Source: Chitinispirillaceae bacterium (GTDB lineage: Bacteria > Fibrobacterota > Chitinivibrionia > Chitinivibrionales > Chitinispirillaceae). From it: a stretch of 64,000 nucleotides of DNA. The translations under genes were made by a program, and so were the position numbers. Every line of letters begins with the position of its first letter. Positions within the stretch are counted from its first letter, which is position 1. Location of the stretch: the NCBI GenBank assembly GCA_016929595.1, contig JAFGIN010000213.1, positions 1 to 64,000 of the forward strand, given 5' to 3'. The notes below the pieces were generated by a model. The model worked only from the letters and a program-made list of their open reading frames with translations, did no database searches and was not told where the DNA came from. This document shows, in pieces, positions 1-5,479 of the stretch.

Positions 1-483
1 GCCAGCTTTGCTGGTTCTTGCACGGGAAATTCAGCGACTGTTACAAATGGAGTTTATACAAGCGGTTCATACGCAAATCCAGCATGGATCAGTGAGCTAT
101 CTGGATCAAAAATTACAGGAAGAGCTGATAGCGCAAGATCTGCAGCCATTGCTGACACTGTTAAAAAAATGCCTGGACAAGAATGGAATGGAACAACCCT
201 TTCATTTATATGCGATGTCGAATTTCAACATAAAATACAGTATAACAGAATACTCACAATATTGGACGGCGCAGCAACAACAATAGACGTTGATGATTTC
301 CCAGCTGTAAATATATCATACTCATCAACAACAAACTGGACGCTTGGTACTGGAGCAAGTGGGCAAAGAATATGTATAGTAAACACATCAGGAGTAACGC
401 ACAATGTAAACGGACACGCTTTAAATACTGGTTTGTTTATGGATTTCATAAGAATTGGTACTGTGTGGTATAGAGAATTTTAG
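1..483 (+). CDS. Phage tail-fibre-like protein, C-terminal part (5' end outside window)
   Basis: The frame is open from base 1 to a TAG at 481-483, so the gene starts left of the window. About 160 residues are visible. The beginning contains a GNSATVTNG-type segment followed by a Ser/Ala-rich helix-like stretch, and the end is a beta-rich Gly/Thr/Asn domain; both are usual at the tips of tail fibres. It is followed 24 bp later by a tail/baseplate gene in the same direction, with a lysozyme further on, which places it in the late structural module of a prophage. An overlapping frame starting at base 8 has no phage features and I regard it as a shadow. The tail-fibre role rests on composition and neighbours, not on a precise family match. 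Confidence 0.65.
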   Translation, partial: ASFAGSCTGNSATVTNGVYTSGSYANPAWISELSGSKITGRADSARSAAIADTVKKMPGQEWNGTTLSFICDVEFQHKIQYNRILTILDGAATTIDVDDFPAVNISYSSTTNWTLGTGASGQRICIVNTSGVTHNVNGHALNTGLFMDFIRIGTVWYREF

Positions 484-507
484 AAATACTAAAAGTTAAG
501 GTCAACA

Positions 508-1188
508 ATGTCATATTTAATAACAGATGATGATTATTATCAAAAAAATCAGCCTGCAAAGTCTGAAGAAATTGCTAATATAATAGAGGTTTATACACAG
601 CCGTTATCATCATCAGAAATTCAGGAGTTATACAAATCAACGGACGCTATAAGAATTATTCCGTATAGTACAAAAATGGTCGAAATTGTATTTGATAAAA
701 AACCCGTAACTGAAGCGGAGATTTCGTTGGAATCAACGACAGCAATTGTTATTGCTGAGAGTACAATTTACGCCTGGGGTGCAACAGTAATTCTCGAAAA
801 TCCATCCGGAACACTCGATTCAGCAATCATATCTGCTAATGGGAGGCTATTAGTTGTAAGTGGTGAAGAATTAATAACAAGAAGAGATGAATTGAGCATC
901 AGAGAATATGGTGAACAAAAGTACACTCTTCCCAAAAATCATTTAATACAAACGAGGGAACAGGCTGAAAGGATTGCCGAAGAATTGTTGCAATCGTATA
1001 AAACTGTACATAAAGATATAGAAATTGACTGGAGGGGAAACCCGGCACTCGAATTAACGGACGAAATCGAAGTCCATGTTTATAAAAGTAAAGCTTTTGA
1101 AAACAGGGGTACTTTTTATATAACAAAAAATACATTTGAATTTGACGGAACTTTGAAACAGCAAACAAACGGGAGAAAAACACAATGA
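508..1188 (+). CDS. Probable phage tail/baseplate structural protein
   Basis: This is a 226-residue protein with an AAGG-type ribosome site 7 bp before its ATG. The C-terminal half (about residues 150-220) has an EQAERIAEELLQSY helix. After it come a strand with an xxNPALELTDEIEVH pattern and a final strand ending in FEFDGTLKQQ. This order (helix, 'GxPxLxxGDxIxV' strand, closing strand) is seen in tail-hub and baseplate proteins of siphoviruses. There is no signal peptide or membrane segment. Its stop codon overlaps the start of the next gene in ATGA, so the two are probably translationally coupled. The tail-hub assignment is inferred from pattern and context; the exact family is not recognised. 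Confidence 0.55.
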   Translation: MSYLITDDDYYQKNQPAKSEEIANIIEVYTQPLSSSEIQELYKSTDAIRIIPYSTKMVEIVFDKKPVTEAEISLESTTAIVIAESTIYAWGATVILENPSGTLDSAIISANGRLLVVSGEELITRRDELSIREYGEQKYTLPKNHLIQTREQAERIAEELLQSYKTVHKDIEIDWRGNPALELTDEIEVHVYKSKAFENRGTFYITKNTFEFDGTLKQQTNGRKTQ

Positions 1189-1877
1189 GTACGGCTCCGA
1201 GCGGATGGGAGACACCTGTAACTGATTATGCCATCGATGATGGTTTATTGGCAAGTGATTTAAATCGCATTGAAAATAATATTAACAGAATAGAAAATGA
1301 AAATAGAACACTAAACCCGGCAAGTGCACCACTTAATAATACTGCAACATTACGAGAATTGCTTGATATGTTTGCGCATCAAATCGGAAAAATGATGGGT
1401 GACGATTGGTATAGCACTGTAAAAGCAAATGTAAAAGATAGCTTTTGGCTTGACGGTACATTGCCAGGAGGTTTTATAATTCCTGCAAGTCCTGCCGCTC
1501 CTCTTGTTTTTGCAGCAACATTTACAATTGTTCCACCAGGAAAAAAACTTATTTTATCACAAATAAAATTTCATGCAAGTAATATCGGTTCAACTACAGG
1601 GCCCACAGGACATATTTACAGTGTATTTTTTTCAAATACATATCCCGATGCGGCTAGTGAATTTTATTGGTATCATGCATCAAGATCGGGCCTTGAATCG
1701 TTAGATTGGTACCAAATGGATGAAGATTTGGACGTTATAGTTTATACAAATAACACTGAAAACGATAAAACGATTTTAATTGAATTGGTCGTTGGTCAAG
1801 GTCCAAGTGATTACACTACACAAACCAGTTATATTTCAAGTCAAGTTAAAGTCAGATTTGATTTAATGGATATTTAA
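1185..1877 (+). CDS. Phage tail protein with NRIENNI-type N-terminal segment
   Basis: This is a 230-residue protein overlapping the upstream gene by 4 bp. Its N-terminus carries a WETPVTDYAIDDGLLASDLNRIENNI-like arrangement, that is W, then a spacer, then 'LNRIE'. This is followed by an LRELLDMFAHQIGKMMG helix and a WY pair, an order found at the start of many phage tail-tip and fibre proteins. The remainder (about 90-230) is a beta-rich domain with no motif I recognise. It probably decorates the tail tip or host-contact region. The following HNH gene begins 10 bp downstream. I am confident that it is a phage structural gene and less sure of its position in the virion. Confidence 0.6.
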   Translation: MSTAPSGWETPVTDYAIDDGLLASDLNRIENNINRIENENRTLNPASAPLNNTATLRELLDMFAHQIGKMMGDDWYSTVKANVKDSFWLDGTLPGGFIIPASPAAPLVFAATFTIVPPGKKLILSQIKFHASNIGSTTGPTGHIYSVFFSNTYPDAASEFYWYHASRSGLESLDWYQMDEDLDVIVYTNNTENDKTILIELVVGQGPSDYTTQTSYISSQVKVRFDLMDI

Positions 1878-1887
1878 CGGGTCGAAC

Positions 1888-2283
1888 ATGCAACGTGGCT
1901 TTAGAATGTGTAAACATCCGGGATGTCCAAAGTTAGTAGAGAATGCTGGCTATTGTGAAAAACACATGGTTCAACACAAAAACGATTCCCGGCAAAACTT
2001 TAAAGCTCTGGATACAAAAAAAACTCCAGAGCAAAAGAAGTTTTATAGTTCTGCAGCCTGGACTGCAGCCAGTCTCTACCACCGCCAGATAGAACCACTC
2101 TGTAGGAGATGCAAAGCTCAGGGCAAAATTGAATTTAGAAATTTGGCAGTACATCACAATCCATCTTATGATTTTTTAGTTAGTAACGGATTAAATCCGC
2201 TTTCCGACAAATATTTAGAAACAATATGTGTGAAACACCATATGGAAGAATTGCGTAAAAAAAATCTAAAAAAGGTTACTTAA
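1888..2283 (+). CDS. Phage HNH endonuclease
   Basis: This is a 131-residue protein. An N-terminal zinc-binding cluster is visible (C8, C13, C23, H26). It is followed by a KFYSSAAWTAASLYHR helix, a CxxC pair (LCRRC), the HNH-type VHHNP histidine pair and a C-terminal ICVKHH. This order is that of small phage HNH nucleases, which nick DNA during packaging or act as homing enzymes. Such genes usually sit beside the terminase; here it lies between tail and lysis genes. Its TAA stop directly abuts the ATG of the lysozyme gene. The nuclease fold is well supported, but its role in this phage is inferred. Confidence 0.8.
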   Translation: MQRGFRMCKHPGCPKLVENAGYCEKHMVQHKNDSRQNFKALDTKKTPEQKKFYSSAAWTAASLYHRQIEPLCRRCKAQGKIEFRNLAVHHNPSYDFLVSNGLNPLSDKYLETICVKHHMEELRKKNLKKVT

Positions 2284-2754
2284 ATGTTTGAAAAAGCTGT
2301 TAATTTAATTTTAAAGTATGAAGGTGCGTATGTGAATGATCCAAAGGATCCCGGTGGTGAAACAAAATTTGGGATTAGTAAAAAATCGTATCCTACTCTT
2401 GATATTAAAAACCTTTCTATAGCTGACGCAAAAAGTATTTACTACCGGGATTACTGGTTACCCTGTCGCTGTGACGAGGTAGATTACAAAATTGCATTAA
2501 TTATTTTTGACACTGCTGTTAATATGGGTGTGGTTCTTGCAGTTGAATTACTTCAGAAATCGTGTAGTGTAAAAACAGATGGAATTTTTGGTTCACAGAC
2601 TATGGCAAAAGTGGCCGTAATGGATCCACTCTTTTTGATTACTACTTATTGTTCTTATAGGATGATGGAATATGTAAAAATGAAAAATTTTCGGTATTAT
2701 GGACATGGATGGACCAAACGCACCATTGAAACTGCAATTATGGCCTGCAAATAG
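2284..2754 (+). CDS. GH108-type phage lysozyme (endolysin)
   Basis: This 156-residue protein opens with the GH108 signature: a helix ending in KYEGAYVND, then DPGGETKFGIS. E13 is the expected catalytic glutamate. A later FDTAVNMG segment and the DGIFGSQT peptidoglycan-binding-like motif are also typical of the ZliS/lysozyme family. The enzyme cuts the glycan strands of peptidoglycan to release phage progeny. No signal peptide is visible and I see no holin gene beside it, so a holin may lie outside the window. The length is slightly below the usual 160-190 residues and the ORF ends in an ordinary TAG. It is the last intact prophage gene before the tRNA-derived repeat at 2854. Confidence 0.82.
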   Translation: MFEKAVNLILKYEGAYVNDPKDPGGETKFGISKKSYPTLDIKNLSIADAKSIYYRDYWLPCRCDEVDYKIALIIFDTAVNMGVVLAVELLQKSCSVKTDGIFGSQTMAKVAVMDPLFLITTYCSYRMMEYVKMKNFRYYGHGWTKRTIETAIMACK

Positions 2755-2853
2755 ATTGAAAAGAGGTGACTAATCTGGTGTCGATACCACATTACAACTG
2801 TTACGTTTTTTTATTGTTTTAATCGCTAAAATTACACACATTACAGTAACGAC
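2755..2853. other. Prophage right-end spacer
   Basis: This is AT-rich sequence between the lysozyme stop and the first tRNA-derived repeat. No gene is visible. It probably represents the phage arm next to the attachment core. Confidence 0.4.
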
Positions 2854-2903
2854 GTTGGCTCATAACCCAAAGGTCGTACGTTCAAATCGTGCCCCCGCTA
2901 CCA
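2854..2903 (+). repeat. tRNA-fMet 3' fragment, copy 1 (attachment-site-like)
   Basis: The sequence reads as the 3' half of an initiator-like tRNA. It has an anticodon loop CTCATAA (anticodon CAT), 3' stem CCCAA, a T-arm GTACG/TTCAAAT/CGTGC that pairs fully, the acceptor strand CCCCGCT, and A plus an encoded CCA. The 5' half is absent and one G is missing from the 5' side of the anticodon stem. tRNA 3' ends are common phage attachment cores. Its place just after the lysozyme suggests that it is the attR of the prophage on the left. A strong hairpin terminator follows. Confidence 0.75.
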
Positions 2904-2907
2904 ATAT

Positions 2908-2953
2908 AAACCCTTCAAAATAGCCAATTCGGTGTATTTTGGAGGGTTTTTTT
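2908..2953 (+). terminator. Rho-independent terminator after tRNA fragment 1
   Basis: AACCCTTCAAAATA and TATTTTGGAGGGTT form a 14-bp stem with one G-T pair, followed by TTTTTTT. It lies directly behind the CCA end, as it would behind a functional tRNA gene. Confidence 0.8.
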
Positions 2954-3014
2954 ATTTTAAGCCTATTCTTCTATTCCCCGTTCAATATACGTTTACTACC
3001 CTGTAAAAGTGTAC

Positions 3015-3047
3015 TTATAGTCCACTAAGTGGACTATAAAGTGGACT
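3015..3047. promoter_or_regulatory. 12-bp inverted repeat plus third half-site
   Basis: TTATAGTCCACT and AGTGGACTATAA flank a single A, making a perfect 12-bp dyad at 3015-3039. AGTGGACT is repeated once more at 3040-3047. The layout is that of a repressor operator or a recombinase-binding site. It lies between tRNA fragment 1 and the broken HNH gene. Confidence 0.45.
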
Positions 3048-3111
3048 CATTTTTCACCGGTTACCATTGGCATGTCTTCAGGGCAATACATAAAAATCAA
3101 ATAAATCTTAC

Positions 3112-3612
3112 TTGCTATCAGCTCCAAACAATATTTTAAACGCAATCCAATTAGCCTCGTTAATGGGATATCCCAGATTTAACTCTGTTAATCCAATAAT
3201 AGGCTCCATTGGCAGGAAAATTAGTGAAAATTATATGGTTCAGCCAGATGAATGGGATAAAAATGATCCCAATTGGTGGTCTGTAATTGCAGACGGTAAA
3301 CGTGAAGGCTTTTTTTATTGGAGACTCAAATCTCAAATTGTTAAATCGCTTCAGAAATCAGACGAATTTAAGGAAAATGGGTTAAAATTCGAACCAGACG
3401 AAATTGTATCGATTCCTGATGGGAATGAAGAAAGTGCAAGGATTAGTGTCCTTGTGAATATCTATGAAAGAGATGCCGGAAATCGAAAAGCGTGCATTGA
3501 ATACCATGGCTGCAAATGTGCAATATGTGGCTTTGATTTTGAACACTTACGCCGATCCGTTCGGAAAGCTGCGAATGAAAACAGAATAGATCAATGTTTG
3601 CAGGGCTTTTAA
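3112..3612 (+). pseudogene. Broken HNH (McrA-like) endonuclease
   Basis: The frame is open from a TTG at 3112 with no ribosome site and an in-frame stop a few codons upstream, so the N-terminus is probably lost. Residues around 125-150 read RKACIEYHGCKCAICGFDFEH, which matches the start of the HNH domain of 5-methylcytosine-type restriction nucleases (the CxxCGFDF zinc knuckle). The expected continuation with the HVHH catalytic histidines is missing. Instead the frame runs into an unrelated Arg/Ala-rich tail and stops 15 bp before tRNA fragment 2. It is therefore truncated at both ends and almost certainly inactive. It lies between two attachment-like repeats, which suggests that it is cargo of a decayed integrated element. 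Confidence 0.6.
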
Positions 3613-3627
3613 TGTCTGACCTTTTCT

Positions 3628-3669
3628 CTCATAACCCAAAGATCGTACGTTAAAATCGTGCCCCCGCTA
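3628..3669 (+). repeat. tRNA-fMet 3' fragment, copy 2
   Basis: This is the same 3' tRNA segment as at 2854. The anticodon loop CTCATAA, CCCAAAGATCGTACG and the acceptor strand are present, with two base changes and no CCA after the discriminator A. It begins exactly at the anticodon loop, and upstream similarity stops there. Confidence 0.7.
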
Positions 3670-3706
3670 ATGTTAAGTTATCGAAATGTAGTTTATTGAA
3701 TTTCAT

Positions 3707-3746
3707 TCTCCAATATTGCGCTTTATATAAAGCGCAATATTGGAGA
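3707..3746. repeat. Perfect 40-bp palindrome
   Basis: Two 19-base arms (3707-3725 and 3728-3746) are perfectly complementary around a TA centre. The arms contain the core CAATATTGCGC. It lies just beyond the end of the CARDB lipoprotein gene, so it may end its transcript, but neither side has a clear T-run. Confidence 0.7.
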
Positions 3747-3766
3747 TGGAGATTTATTCTGCAATA

Positions 3767-4588
3767 TTACGGAATGGGGATGATTTTCACGTTATTGCCT
3801 TCTTTGATTTCCATTACTTTATTGGAATTATCAATTACCATGATAAGATATTTTTTACCAGCTTTTTTGGGTGCAGAAAAAGTGAACGTATGTGTTGCTT
3901 TTGAACCAAGTGATTTGTGTACTAACATTTTTGTACCGCCAGAAGCCACATCGTCACTGTTTCCGTATACTGCGTCCCCTGATTCATATGTCTGTGCAAT
4001 GATTTCATAGATATCTGGTATTGTTGTGTAACCGTCGTTTTTAATTGTTGCAGTGTATTTGATGGTAGTGCTTGTCATACTGGTAATTTTAAACGAAGAA
4101 ACGATTACGTCAGGAAGTATGAGTTTAAAGTAAGTGTTGTTGTTTTCATTTGATTCATTTATACTGTTCGAATTGTCGATAACGGGCACCAGATATTTAT
4201 ATGATGACGACCAGTTTGACTCATACGTATAGTAGGTAAATGAGAATGATTCTCCAGGCTTTAATGTAATATTCTTGCCCAGTATCCTTCCACCAGCTGC
4301 TTTATCATCGGCATCGCCTATAATTGTGTTTTTTGACAAGTAGTTCTGAAGTACGACATTGTAAAGGTTTGGTGTTGTTGCTGTTCCCCTATTTTTAATG
4401 GTGATCGTGTAAGTTAGCTTCCCGCCAACATTTGATACATACGAAAATGAAGTGATGTCCAGATCCGGCAATGCAGCAGCGTTGATTGCGACATCATTTT
4501 GAGCTACGGATAACGGATTATCGGTACAACCGACAATGAACATACCTGTTGAAACTGCTGCTGCAAATAGTAACTTCTTCAATGTCAT
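3767..4588 (-). CDS. Lipoprotein with two CARDB domains
   Basis: This is a 273-residue exported lipoprotein. KKLLFAAAVSTGMFIVGC is a clear SPase II signal with the lipid-modified Cys at 21. Two similar beta-sandwich units follow (about 40-155 and 160-270). Each begins PDLDI/PDVIV, contains a TYTITIKN/KYTATIKN strand, and ends in VIDNSN....E..NN, the CARDB adhesion-domain hallmark. A GGAG ribosome site precedes the ATG. It is a single-gene unit, read toward the palindrome at 3707 and enclosed by tRNA fragments 2 and 3. It probably mediates carbohydrate or surface adhesion from the outer membrane. It could have arrived as cargo of an integrated element, since the phage-like and mobile debris lies on both sides. 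Confidence 0.75.
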   Translation of the reverse strand: MTLKKLLFAAAVSTGMFIVGCTDNPLSVAQNDVAINAAALPDLDITSFSYVSNVGGKLTYTITIKNRGTATTPNLYNVVLQNYLSKNTIIGDADDKAAGGRILGKNITLKPGESFSFTYYTYESNWSSSYKYLVPVIDNSNSINESNENNNTYFKLILPDVIVSSFKITSMTSTTIKYTATIKNDGYTTIPDIYEIIAQTYESGDAVYGNSDDVASGGTKMLVHKSLGSKATHTFTFSAPKKAGKKYLIMVIDNSNKVMEIKEGNNVKIIPIP

Positions 4589-4870
4589 AAGACACTCCTT
4601 TAGATGTTAAACAGATGATAAAATGGGGCTGATTCGTGAAATGCCCCTGTTCGATTTCATTCCTGTGATGTATACGTTCATTAACATACTTTATATATTT
4701 GATTAGAATGATAAAAATGATACGAAACCCTCAAAATTGGTAATGAACTGTCAAAATTCAGTAATGAAACAGTAATTACTCTCTCATTGTACGACAAAAC
4801 GGTAACATACATTGTTGTATATTGTATTGCATAAGTATAACTATATTCCGTTGCAATTAGTATAGCGCAA
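4589..4870. other. Intergenic, probable promoter region of the CARDB gene
   Basis: This is AT-rich sequence with no gene visible. The promoter for the minus-strand lipoprotein gene must lie here, but I cannot fix its -10 and -35 boxes. Confidence 0.3.
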
Positions 4871-5169
4871 ATGGAAATAACAGTAACAAAAGAAATGATA
4901 GCAACAGTTAATGAAAGTGATCCAATGCATGATGATACATTGCCGATTATCCGCCAGCCTTGTCAAACGTAATACTTAGAAGCGGTTGTTATACTTGAAA
5001 GACTTAGTTTGTATAACAATGGTAAACCCCGTGGAGCTGTAGCACTACGACGGCAATTACAGTATATGGGATTAGTACAATTTTCATCAGTTAGTACGAT
5101 TAATCGAATTTTATCAAAGAATTTTCTGACTAACAGAAGAACCGGATACTATCCGGAAGATTATTGCTG
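4871..5169 (+). pseudogene. Transposase remnant with in-frame stop
   Basis: From the ATG at 4871 the frame gives 33 residues, then TAA at 4970-4972, then stays open in the same frame to a TGA at 5167-5169. The second part contains RGAVALRRQLQ, followed by VSTINRILSKNFLTNRRTGYYPED. This looks like the helix-turn-helix and linker that precede the DDE core in integrase-type transposases. No DDE core follows. It is read as a nonsense-interrupted, C-terminally deleted insertion-sequence gene. The family assignment is by pattern only. Confidence 0.5.
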
Positions 5170-5240
5170 ATAAATCCCTGAAAAATGGGTAAAAGAAAAA
5201 ACTGTTTAAAAGGGCGGATCGGCATTAAAAAATTACTAAA

Positions 5241-5315
5241 TAGCTCGCTGGGCTCATAATCCCGCCTTCGAAGACTTTGGCGGGATCGTACGTTCAAATC
5301 GTGCCCCCGCTACCA
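5241..5315 (+). repeat. tRNA-fMet 3' fragment, copy 3, with internal hairpin insertion
   Basis: Similarity to an initiator-like tRNA begins in the D-arm (TAGCTCG) and runs through CTGGG and the CTCATAA anticodon loop to the encoded CCA. In place of the normal CCCAAAGG after the loop there is TCCCGCC, a 12-base loop and GGCGGGA, a 7-bp hairpin. The T-arm and acceptor strand are intact. The 5' acceptor strand is absent, so this is not a working tRNA gene. Confidence 0.7.
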
Positions 5316-5322
5316 ATACAGA

Positions 5323-5358
5323 AAAAGGCTTCGGTTGTACCGGAGCCTTTTTTCTTTT
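5323..5358 (+). terminator. Rho-independent terminator after tRNA fragment 3
   Basis: GGCTTCGG and CCGGAGCC pair across a TTGTA loop and are followed by TTTTTTCTTTT. It differs in sequence from the terminator behind copy 1. Confidence 0.75.
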
Positions 5359-5374
5359 AACAGCAAAACCTGAA

Positions 5375-5479
5375 ATGTATTTCGTTTATATAATCAGACC
5401 AGAGGCAGGTCGTTATCATTATTACATCGGATCAGCAGAGGATATTCCCTCTCGTTTGTAACACCATGATGAAAAGCTT
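5375..5479 (+). pseudogene. GIY-YIG endonuclease remnant
   Basis: An ATG at 5375 starts MYFVYIIRPEAGRYHYYIG, the N-terminal beta-strand pair of small UvrC-like GIY-YIG nucleases, continuing SAEDIPSRL. A TAA at 5459-5461 then interrupts the frame. The next in-frame codons read HHDEKL, where intact members have an xHNxGK motif. The remainder of the domain is missing because the Fic gene end lies 30 bp further on. It is a short decayed fragment. Confidence 0.6.

What the first reader, a model, noticed from the sequence alone, without database searches (positions are those of the whole stretch)
2854..5315. Three spaced 3' fragments of an initiator-like tRNA
The same 3' tRNA segment (anticodon CAT, CTCATAA loop, T-arm and acceptor strand) occurs at 2854, 3628 and 5241. 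None has a 5' half. Copies 1 and 3 have CCA and terminators of different sequence behind them. Phage and island integrases often use tRNA 3' ends. Successive integrations at one site would leave such tandem scars, each enclosing cargo: the HNH remnant between copies 1 and 2, and the CARDB lipoprotein plus transposase remnant between copies 2 and 3. The CAT anticodon and CCCAAAGGTC form suggest tRNA-fMet, which is a risky gene for an integrase to use.
Basis: partly seen in the sequence, partly recalled or inferred. Interest (0 to 1): 0.62.

Follow-up and report, generated by a model that had tools for sequence, protein, structure and literature searches.

The report
Layered invasion scars beside initiator tRNA
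A bacterium's start-codon tRNA gene has been invaded again and again: one of the three tRNA scraps marks the end of a virus inserted there, one looks like an older scar of the same sort, and one comes from a different, apparently undescribed kind of small nuclease-gene cassette that settles beside tRNA genes.

Summary
The three fragments are real. The intact gene is an initiator tRNA-fMet on another contig, C69. Copy 1 (2857-2903) matches its last 47 nt exactly and is the attR of a prophage of about 39 kb, which runs from the tRNA-fMet with a tyrosine integrase beside it (C69), through contig C64 (terminase, portal, capsid, tape measure), into window 1-2856. The C69-C64 overlap is unique in the genome; the C64-C70 junction is not closed. 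Copy 2 (3628-3669) is a decayed fragment of the same type. Five genera have integrases of two lineages beside fMet or its fragments, and one has a complete 16.7-kb island there. Copy 3 is different: a 26-bp palindrome replaces CCCAAAGG, an ORF tail ending ..NSSLGS* runs into it, and a broken GIY-YIG gene follows. Another genus has this arrangement complete and in tandem, and sister cassettes sit at tRNA-Asn, tRNA-Lys and tRNA-Ala. Copy 3 is best read as the scar of a GIY-YIG nuclease cassette. I found no description of such chromosomal cassettes; T-even phage SegB is the nearest analogue.

The parts
1..2856 (+). right end of the prophage: tail-fibre end, tail protein (508-1188), unknown (1185-1877), HNH (1888-2283), GH108 endolysin (2284-2754)
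   Evidence: joined to C64 by a 77-bp 97% match
2857..2903 (+). copy 1: prophage attR, fMet 3' 47 nt (anticodon loop to CCA)
   Evidence: 100% to C69:58630-58676
2908..2955 (+). terminator-like imperfect hairpin plus T-run behind copy 1
   Evidence: sequence; not listed by the simple scanner
3112..3612 (+). truncated ORF between copies 1 and 2; HNH-like ending by eye only
   Evidence: no family at E<=0.001
3628..3669 (+). copy 2: older integrase-type fMet fragment, no CCA
   Evidence: 95% over tRNA positions 33-74
3767..4588 (-). CARDB lipoprotein between copies 2 and 3
   Evidence: PF07705 E 9.5e-20
5185..5259 (+). tail of a GIY-YIG-like ORF (..KKLLNSSLGS*), last codons in the tRNA D-arm/anticodon sequence
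   Evidence: frame reading; compare ..FKRLTGSSLGS* in L045; similarity by eye
5241..5259 (+). copy 3, 5' part (tRNA positions 21-39)
5260..5285 (+). palindrome TCCCGCCTTCGAAGACTTTGGCGGGA replacing CCCAAAGG
   Evidence: only one in the genome; same place in G007
5286..5315 (+). copy 3, 3' part: T-arm, acceptor, CCA
   Evidence: 100%
5322..5352 (+). terminator behind copy 3
   Evidence: inverted repeat I6
5375..5478 (+). broken start of a GIY-YIG gene (MYFVYII..YYIGSAEDIPSRL*HHDEK)
   Evidence: GIY-YIG profile, domain E 1.8e-8 in a three-frame search

Best explanation
tRNA-fMet is a repeatedly used insertion site in this Fibrobacterota family. (1) Copy 1 is the attR of a resident prophage of about 39 kb. 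Its tyrosine integrase recombines in or beside the anticodon loop (CTCATAA). The phage attP carries the 3' 47 nt of the tRNA, so the gene is rebuilt at attL and the displaced original 3' end stays as copy 1. (2) Copy 2 is the equivalent fragment left by an earlier integrase-type element that has lost most of its body; the newest insertion lies nearest the intact gene. (3) Copy 3 is the oldest by position and of another kind: the 3' end of a GIY-YIG cassette. In complete cassettes elsewhere the order is: intact tRNA, then a small GIY-YIG nuclease ORF whose last codons run into a second copy of the tRNA D-arm, then a perfect palindrome replacing part of the anticodon arm, then the T-arm, acceptor and terminator. 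The proposed working is homing: the nuclease cuts an uninvaded tRNA gene, and repair from the cassette-bearing copy inserts the ORF while keeping an intact tRNA upstream. The palindrome makes the spare tRNA end inert, either as RNA or as a cleavage site. Shown by sequence: anatomy, att identity, phage contents, recurrence and tandem arrays. Inferred: order of events, exact crossover point, DNA cleavage, homing, and the role of the palindrome.
For: Intact tRNA-fMet with a convergent integrase 97 bp behind it (phrog_1 E 7.9e-23). Exact 47-nt att repeat. C69 end and C64 start share 74 bp of a 39-bp tandem repeat found nowhere else in the genome. C64 carries terminase, portal, major head and tape-measure genes on one strand and its end is 97% identical over 77 bp to the start of C70. 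fMet 3' fragments beginning at tRNA positions 28-33 also occur in G003 (two), G008, G013 (two) and G031; G008 has a whole island with integrase and primase between intact gene and fragment. Integrases lie beside fMet or its fragment in G000, G003, G005, G008 and G037. Copy 3: the same motif occurs only in G000 and G007 among 40 class genomes; G007 has a complete GIY-YIG ORF ending in it and a 190-bp tandem array. GIY-YIG ORFs flanked by tRNA direct repeats at tRNA-Lys, tRNA-Asn (two in tandem) and tRNA-Ala exceed shuffles.
Against: The C64-C70 junction is not closed: the 77-bp match lies in what looks like a repeated tail-fibre motif and is 97%, not 100%. Segments 1-2 and 2-3 hold no integrase, so those copies could come from partial duplication followed by decay. 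The GIY-YIG pieces beside copy 3 are short; the upstream tail is similar by eye only. No strictly empty allele was found: no other genome of the same genus was in the sample, and the attempt with the sister of G007 failed. Several GIY-YIG genes behind tRNA or tmRNA have no second RNA fragment. The genome is a metagenome assembly with 3.6% estimated contamination.
Confidence: 0.8

Rival explanations
1. All three fragments are scars of successive tyrosine-integrase elements at one attB; the palindrome and GIY-YIG pieces at copy 3 came later by chance.
For: Same orientation and same tRNA end; integrases recur at this site across the family.
Against: Copy 3 starts further 5' than integrase-type fragments and has the palindrome at exactly the place seen in G007, where it is joined to a GIY-YIG ORF.
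Confidence: 0.15
2. GIY-YIG genes behind tRNA/tmRNA genes are stationary residents or random neighbours; tRNA repeats and palindromes reflect local duplication and decay, not homing.
For: Five tmRNA-adjacent cases lack a second RNA end, and one tRNA-Asn case (G027) has none. TCCCGAT palindromes are a dispersed repeat, 56 in G007.
Against: The architecture recurs at four different tRNAs with the ORF end inside the tRNA copy at three of them; chance adjacency is about 0.05 expected in 45 loci against at least 8 seen.
Confidence: 0.3
3. The palindrome-bearing tRNA ends are expressed structured RNAs (decoys or regulators) kept by selection.
For: The G007 fMet and Asn forms fold better than all 200 shuffles; tandem copies carry terminators.
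Against: Perfect palindromes alone give that score; the window copy is weaker (z -1.9) and the stems are not shared between tRNA types; no expression data.
Confidence: 0.08

Closest known systems
Genomic islands and prophages in tRNA genes, anticodon-loop type (Islander, PMC4383910)
   Same: Intact tRNA gene, displaced 3' fragment in the same orientation, tyrosine integrase beside the tRNA, fragment starting at the anticodon loop
   Different: The target is the initiator tRNA, with a single full-length copy in most relatives here; copies 2 and 3 lack integrases; copy 3 does not fit the class
SegB, the free-standing GIY-YIG homing endonuclease of T-even phages (PMC2988022, PMC13096335)
   Same: Small GIY-YIG gene beside tRNA genes; SegB cuts inside tRNA genes; [quoted passage not shown]
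   Different: Here on bacterial chromosomes, at single tRNA or tmRNA genes, with the ORF end running into a palindrome-broken copy of the tRNA 3' end; cleavage is not shown
Group I intron with endonuclease in tRNA-fMet (cited in PMC3984707)
   Same: The fMet anticodon region as a homing target for an endonuclease
   Different: No intron: Rfam finds none in the window and the intact tRNA is uninterrupted
Rickettsia palindromic elements (literature search; details from own knowledge)
   Same: Small palindromes inside genes
   Different: Here a palindrome replaces, rather than splits, a stretch of tRNA-derived sequence

Membership tests
tRNA-gene integrative prophage/island (copy 1) | intact target tRNA gene at one end and displaced 3' fragment in the same orientation at the other | tested here: met
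   contigs linked, with one junction not closed
tRNA-gene integrative prophage/island (copy 1) | tyrosine integrase gene adjacent to the tRNA gene | tested here: met
   L006:3775-4923 (-), phrog_1 E 7.9e-23; HDYRK..GH..Y motif visible
tRNA-gene integrative prophage/island (copy 1) | phage packaging and structural genes between the att sites | tested here: met
   terminase, portal, major head and tape measure on C64; endolysin in the window
tRNA-gene integrative prophage/island (copy 1) | excision to attP and attB | not testable with these tools
   needs reads or wet work
tandem array of islands at one tRNA (copies 1-3) | each member has its own integrase and fragment | tested here: not met
   no integrase between copies 1-2 or 2-3
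free-standing GIY-YIG homing endonuclease (copy 3 cassette) | GIY-YIG catalytic domain with conserved Tyr, Tyr, Arg, His, Glu | tested here: met
   PF01541 in complete relatives; Y5, Y16, R26, H30, E66 invariant; the window itself holds only a broken start
free-standing GIY-YIG homing endonuclease (copy 3 cassette) | gene presence versus absence at the same site in related genomes | tested here: inconclusive
   sister genome G014 could not be aligned across tRNA-Asn
free-standing GIY-YIG homing endonuclease (copy 3 cassette) | cleavage of the target in DNA lacking the gene | not testable with these tools
   biochemistry needed
group I intron in tRNA-fMet | self-splicing intron interrupting the tRNA gene | tested here: not met
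   no Rfam intron match in the window; intact tRNA uninterrupted

The most novel reading that the evidence does not exclude
Fibrobacterota chromosomes carry autonomous GIY-YIG cassettes that home into tRNA genes (fMet, Asn, Lys, Ala), carry their own copy of the tRNA 3' end so that the target gene survives, often blank the spare copy with palindromes, and amplify in tandem. This would be a way of living in tRNA genes that does not use a tyrosine integrase.
Probability: 0.45. Interest if true: 0.72.

Novelty: new variant of a known kind. Interest (0 to 1): 0.55.

Why it matters
The Islander paper states that only tyrosine integrases are known to target tRNA genes (PMC4383910; 2014). A nuclease-based cassette that arrives at the same architecture, with the target gene kept and a spare 3' end left behind, would be a second solution to the same problem and could mislead island finders that rely on tRNA fragments. 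The SegB work (PMC13096335) suggests how such a nuclease could drive tandem amplification beside tRNA genes, as the G007 array shows. The fMet site also shows that an initiator tRNA gene, with a single full-length copy in most of these genomes, can be a repeatedly used docking site.

Tried and rejected
Relatives of the integrase and primase in viral and genome collections: none found. Relatives of the phage endolysin: 26 viral contigs, but none shares the other prophage genes tested. Terminase_6N search for the missing prophage part: none; the portal search found it. Direct C69-C70 overlap: none, because C64 lies between them. Empty site: flank genes are not syntenic at fMet in relatives, and the sister genome of G007 did not align at tRNA-Asn. 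The idea that TCCCGAT..ATCGGGA palindromes are specific to tRNA remnants was rejected: G007 has 56, many elsewhere. The cassette GIY-YIG protein finds nothing in plasmids or phages, and a profile search of viral contigs could not be run. Literature searches found no description of chromosomal GIY-YIG cassettes at tRNA genes; only open-access full text is held, so that absence is weak evidence. In one search the Fisher test is partly circular, because nine of the high-scoring proteins seeded the profile; I rely on the unbiased PF01541 survey and on the unseeded hits (G167 tRNA-Ala; G036 and G004 tmRNA). The fifth sequence folded carried a mistyped 5' prefix and is not used.

Full report
WHERE IT IS. 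The window is the first 64,000 bases of contig C70 of a 6.6-Mb assembly with 224 contigs. Exact matches to the 3' tRNA sequence in named genomes are metagenome-assembled Fibrobacter sp., so the organism belongs to a Fibrobacterota family.

THE OBSERVATION. Copy 1 (2857-2903) is identical to the last 47 nt of the intact gene. Copy 2 (3628-3669) is 95% identical over tRNA positions 33-74 and has no CCA. Copy 3 (5241-5315) is different: it includes more of the 5' side (TAGCTCGCTGGGCTCATAA), then a 26-bp palindrome in place of CCCAAAGG, then the unaltered T-arm, acceptor and CCA. No complete tRNA lies in the window.

THE INTACT GENE. It is at C69:58600-58676 and is called tRNA-Met by ARAGORN. It has the marks of an initiator: C1 opposite U72, three G-C pairs next to the anticodon loop, and A11-U24 (read from the sequence; that these mark initiators is established knowledge). 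The same 77 nt occur unchanged in two relatives, so insertion has not altered the product. Nearly all relatives with a match show one full-length copy. G000 has a second, 86%-identical gene on the 7.4-kb contig C212, which may be acquired or contaminant DNA.

THE PROPHAGE. Right behind the tRNA lies a convergent tyrosine integrase (L006:3775-4923), then an excisionase-sized DNA-binding protein, then ParB-like, primase and anti-repressor genes. C69 ends in a 39-bp tandem repeat that occurs elsewhere in the genome only at the start of C64, with 74 bp of exact overlap. C64 (22 kb) encodes the large terminase, portal, major head and tape-measure proteins. Its end is 97% identical over 77 bp to the start of C70, in what looks like a repeated tail-fibre motif, and the window continues with tail, HNH and endolysin genes up to copy 1. 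The whole is about 39 kb. Base composition agrees: 36-38% G+C on the three phage pieces against 42% in host DNA. The C64-C70 junction itself is not closed.

THE SITE ACROSS THE FAMILY. fMet 3' fragments starting at positions 28-33 occur in G003 (two), G008, G013 (two) and G031. G008 holds a complete 16.7-kb element between intact gene and fragment, with its own integrase and primase. Integrases lie beside fMet or a fragment in five genera and form two lineages that do not match each other by BLASTP. In G005 one fragment is bordered by integrases of both lineages. Copies 1 and 2 therefore fit the known anticodon-loop class of tRNA-gene integration (PMC4383910). That paper counts 125 tandems of two or more and four of three or more in 2168 genomes.

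COPY 3 IS ANOTHER THING. The motif CTCATAA-TCCCGCC..GGCGGGA-TCG occurs in only two of 40 class genomes, G000 and G007. In G007 a complete GIY-YIG gene (PF01541) ends ..FKRLTGSSLGS*, its last codons being GGTAGCTCGTTGGGCTCATAA of the tRNA; the palindrome, T-arm, acceptor, CCA and terminator follow. Next to the intact fMet of G007 there are three tandem units of 190 bp in which the GIY-YIG gene is cut down to its tail. The window shows the same order in ruins: an ORF tail ending ..KKLLNSSLGS*, the palindrome, the tRNA end, the terminator, and then the broken start of a GIY-YIG gene. The upstream tail is matched by eye only.

THE CASSETTE CLASS. A survey of PF01541 in the class, followed by tRNA finding around the small GIY-YIG genes, shows such genes directly 3' of tRNA-Asn (G007, two in tandem; G027), tRNA-Lys (G003) and tmRNA (G004, G028, G030, G035, G036). 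About 0.05 loci within 200 bp on the same strand would be expected by chance in 45 loci. A phylum search added tRNA-Ala in a genome of another family. Direct repeats of tRNA sequence on both sides of the ORF exceed shuffles for Lys, Asn and Ala; in G036 the repeat is 72 bp of spacer behind tmRNA. In the Lys, Asn and fMet cases a perfect palindrome replaces part of the anticodon-arm region of the second copy, and in Asn a second palindrome replaces part of the T-arm. At Ala there is no palindrome. Catalytic-type Tyr, Tyr, Arg, His and Glu positions are invariant in the alignment.

MECHANISM. For copy 1 the mechanism is ordinary site-specific recombination. For the cassette, the best analogue is SegB: a free-standing GIY-YIG homing endonuclease between phage tRNA genes (PMC2988022) that cuts inside tRNA genes and whose locus amplifies in tandem with truncated segB, with tRNA/segB microhomology (PMC13096335). 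The motif reported there, RAWTSGAAC, is the reverse complement of a T-loop-like sequence (own reading). I infer that the cassette nuclease cuts tRNA genes, that repair copies the cassette, and that palindromes silence the spare tRNA end. None of this is tested.

VERDICT. Layered invasion of one initiator tRNA gene is confirmed. One layer is a mapped prophage, one an older integrase-type scar, and one a probable GIY-YIG cassette, which is the unexpected part.

Noticed in passing
L006:3494-3590 (C69, directly upstream of intact tRNA-fMet); L042 upstream of its fMet: A second, broken tRNA-fMet copy with palindromes (CGCGGGGTGGAG-TCCCGAT..ATCGGGA-..) lies upstream of the intact gene in two genera, G000 and G008; it is not an integrase-type fragment and is unexplained.
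   Followed up: partly
window 3708-3745: Perfect 38-bp palindrome CTCCAATATTGCGCTTTATATAAAGCGCAATATTGGAG shortly behind copy 2; Rfam gives only sub-threshold hairpin matches.
   Followed up: no
G000:C212:5421-5495 (L007): A second initiator-like tRNA gene, 86% identical, on a 7.4-kb contig; nearly all relatives have only one. Acquired gene or contaminant.
   Followed up: partly
L092, L107, L111, L112, L117: Small GIY-YIG genes directly 3' of tmRNA in five genomes, mostly without a second RNA fragment; may be a standing neighbourhood rather than a mobile cassette.
   Followed up: partly
G007 (56 places), G000 (7 places): Dispersed palindromes TCCCGATN2-10ATCGGGA, never seen in the reversed control; probably a small repeat family.
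   Followed up: partly
L006:17700-17789 and L200:1-87: 39-bp tandem repeat inside the prophage, absent elsewhere in the genome.
   Followed up: partly
L006:6191-6964: The prophage carries a class 3 lipase-like gene near its integrase end (PF01764, E 3.8e-16).
   Followed up: no
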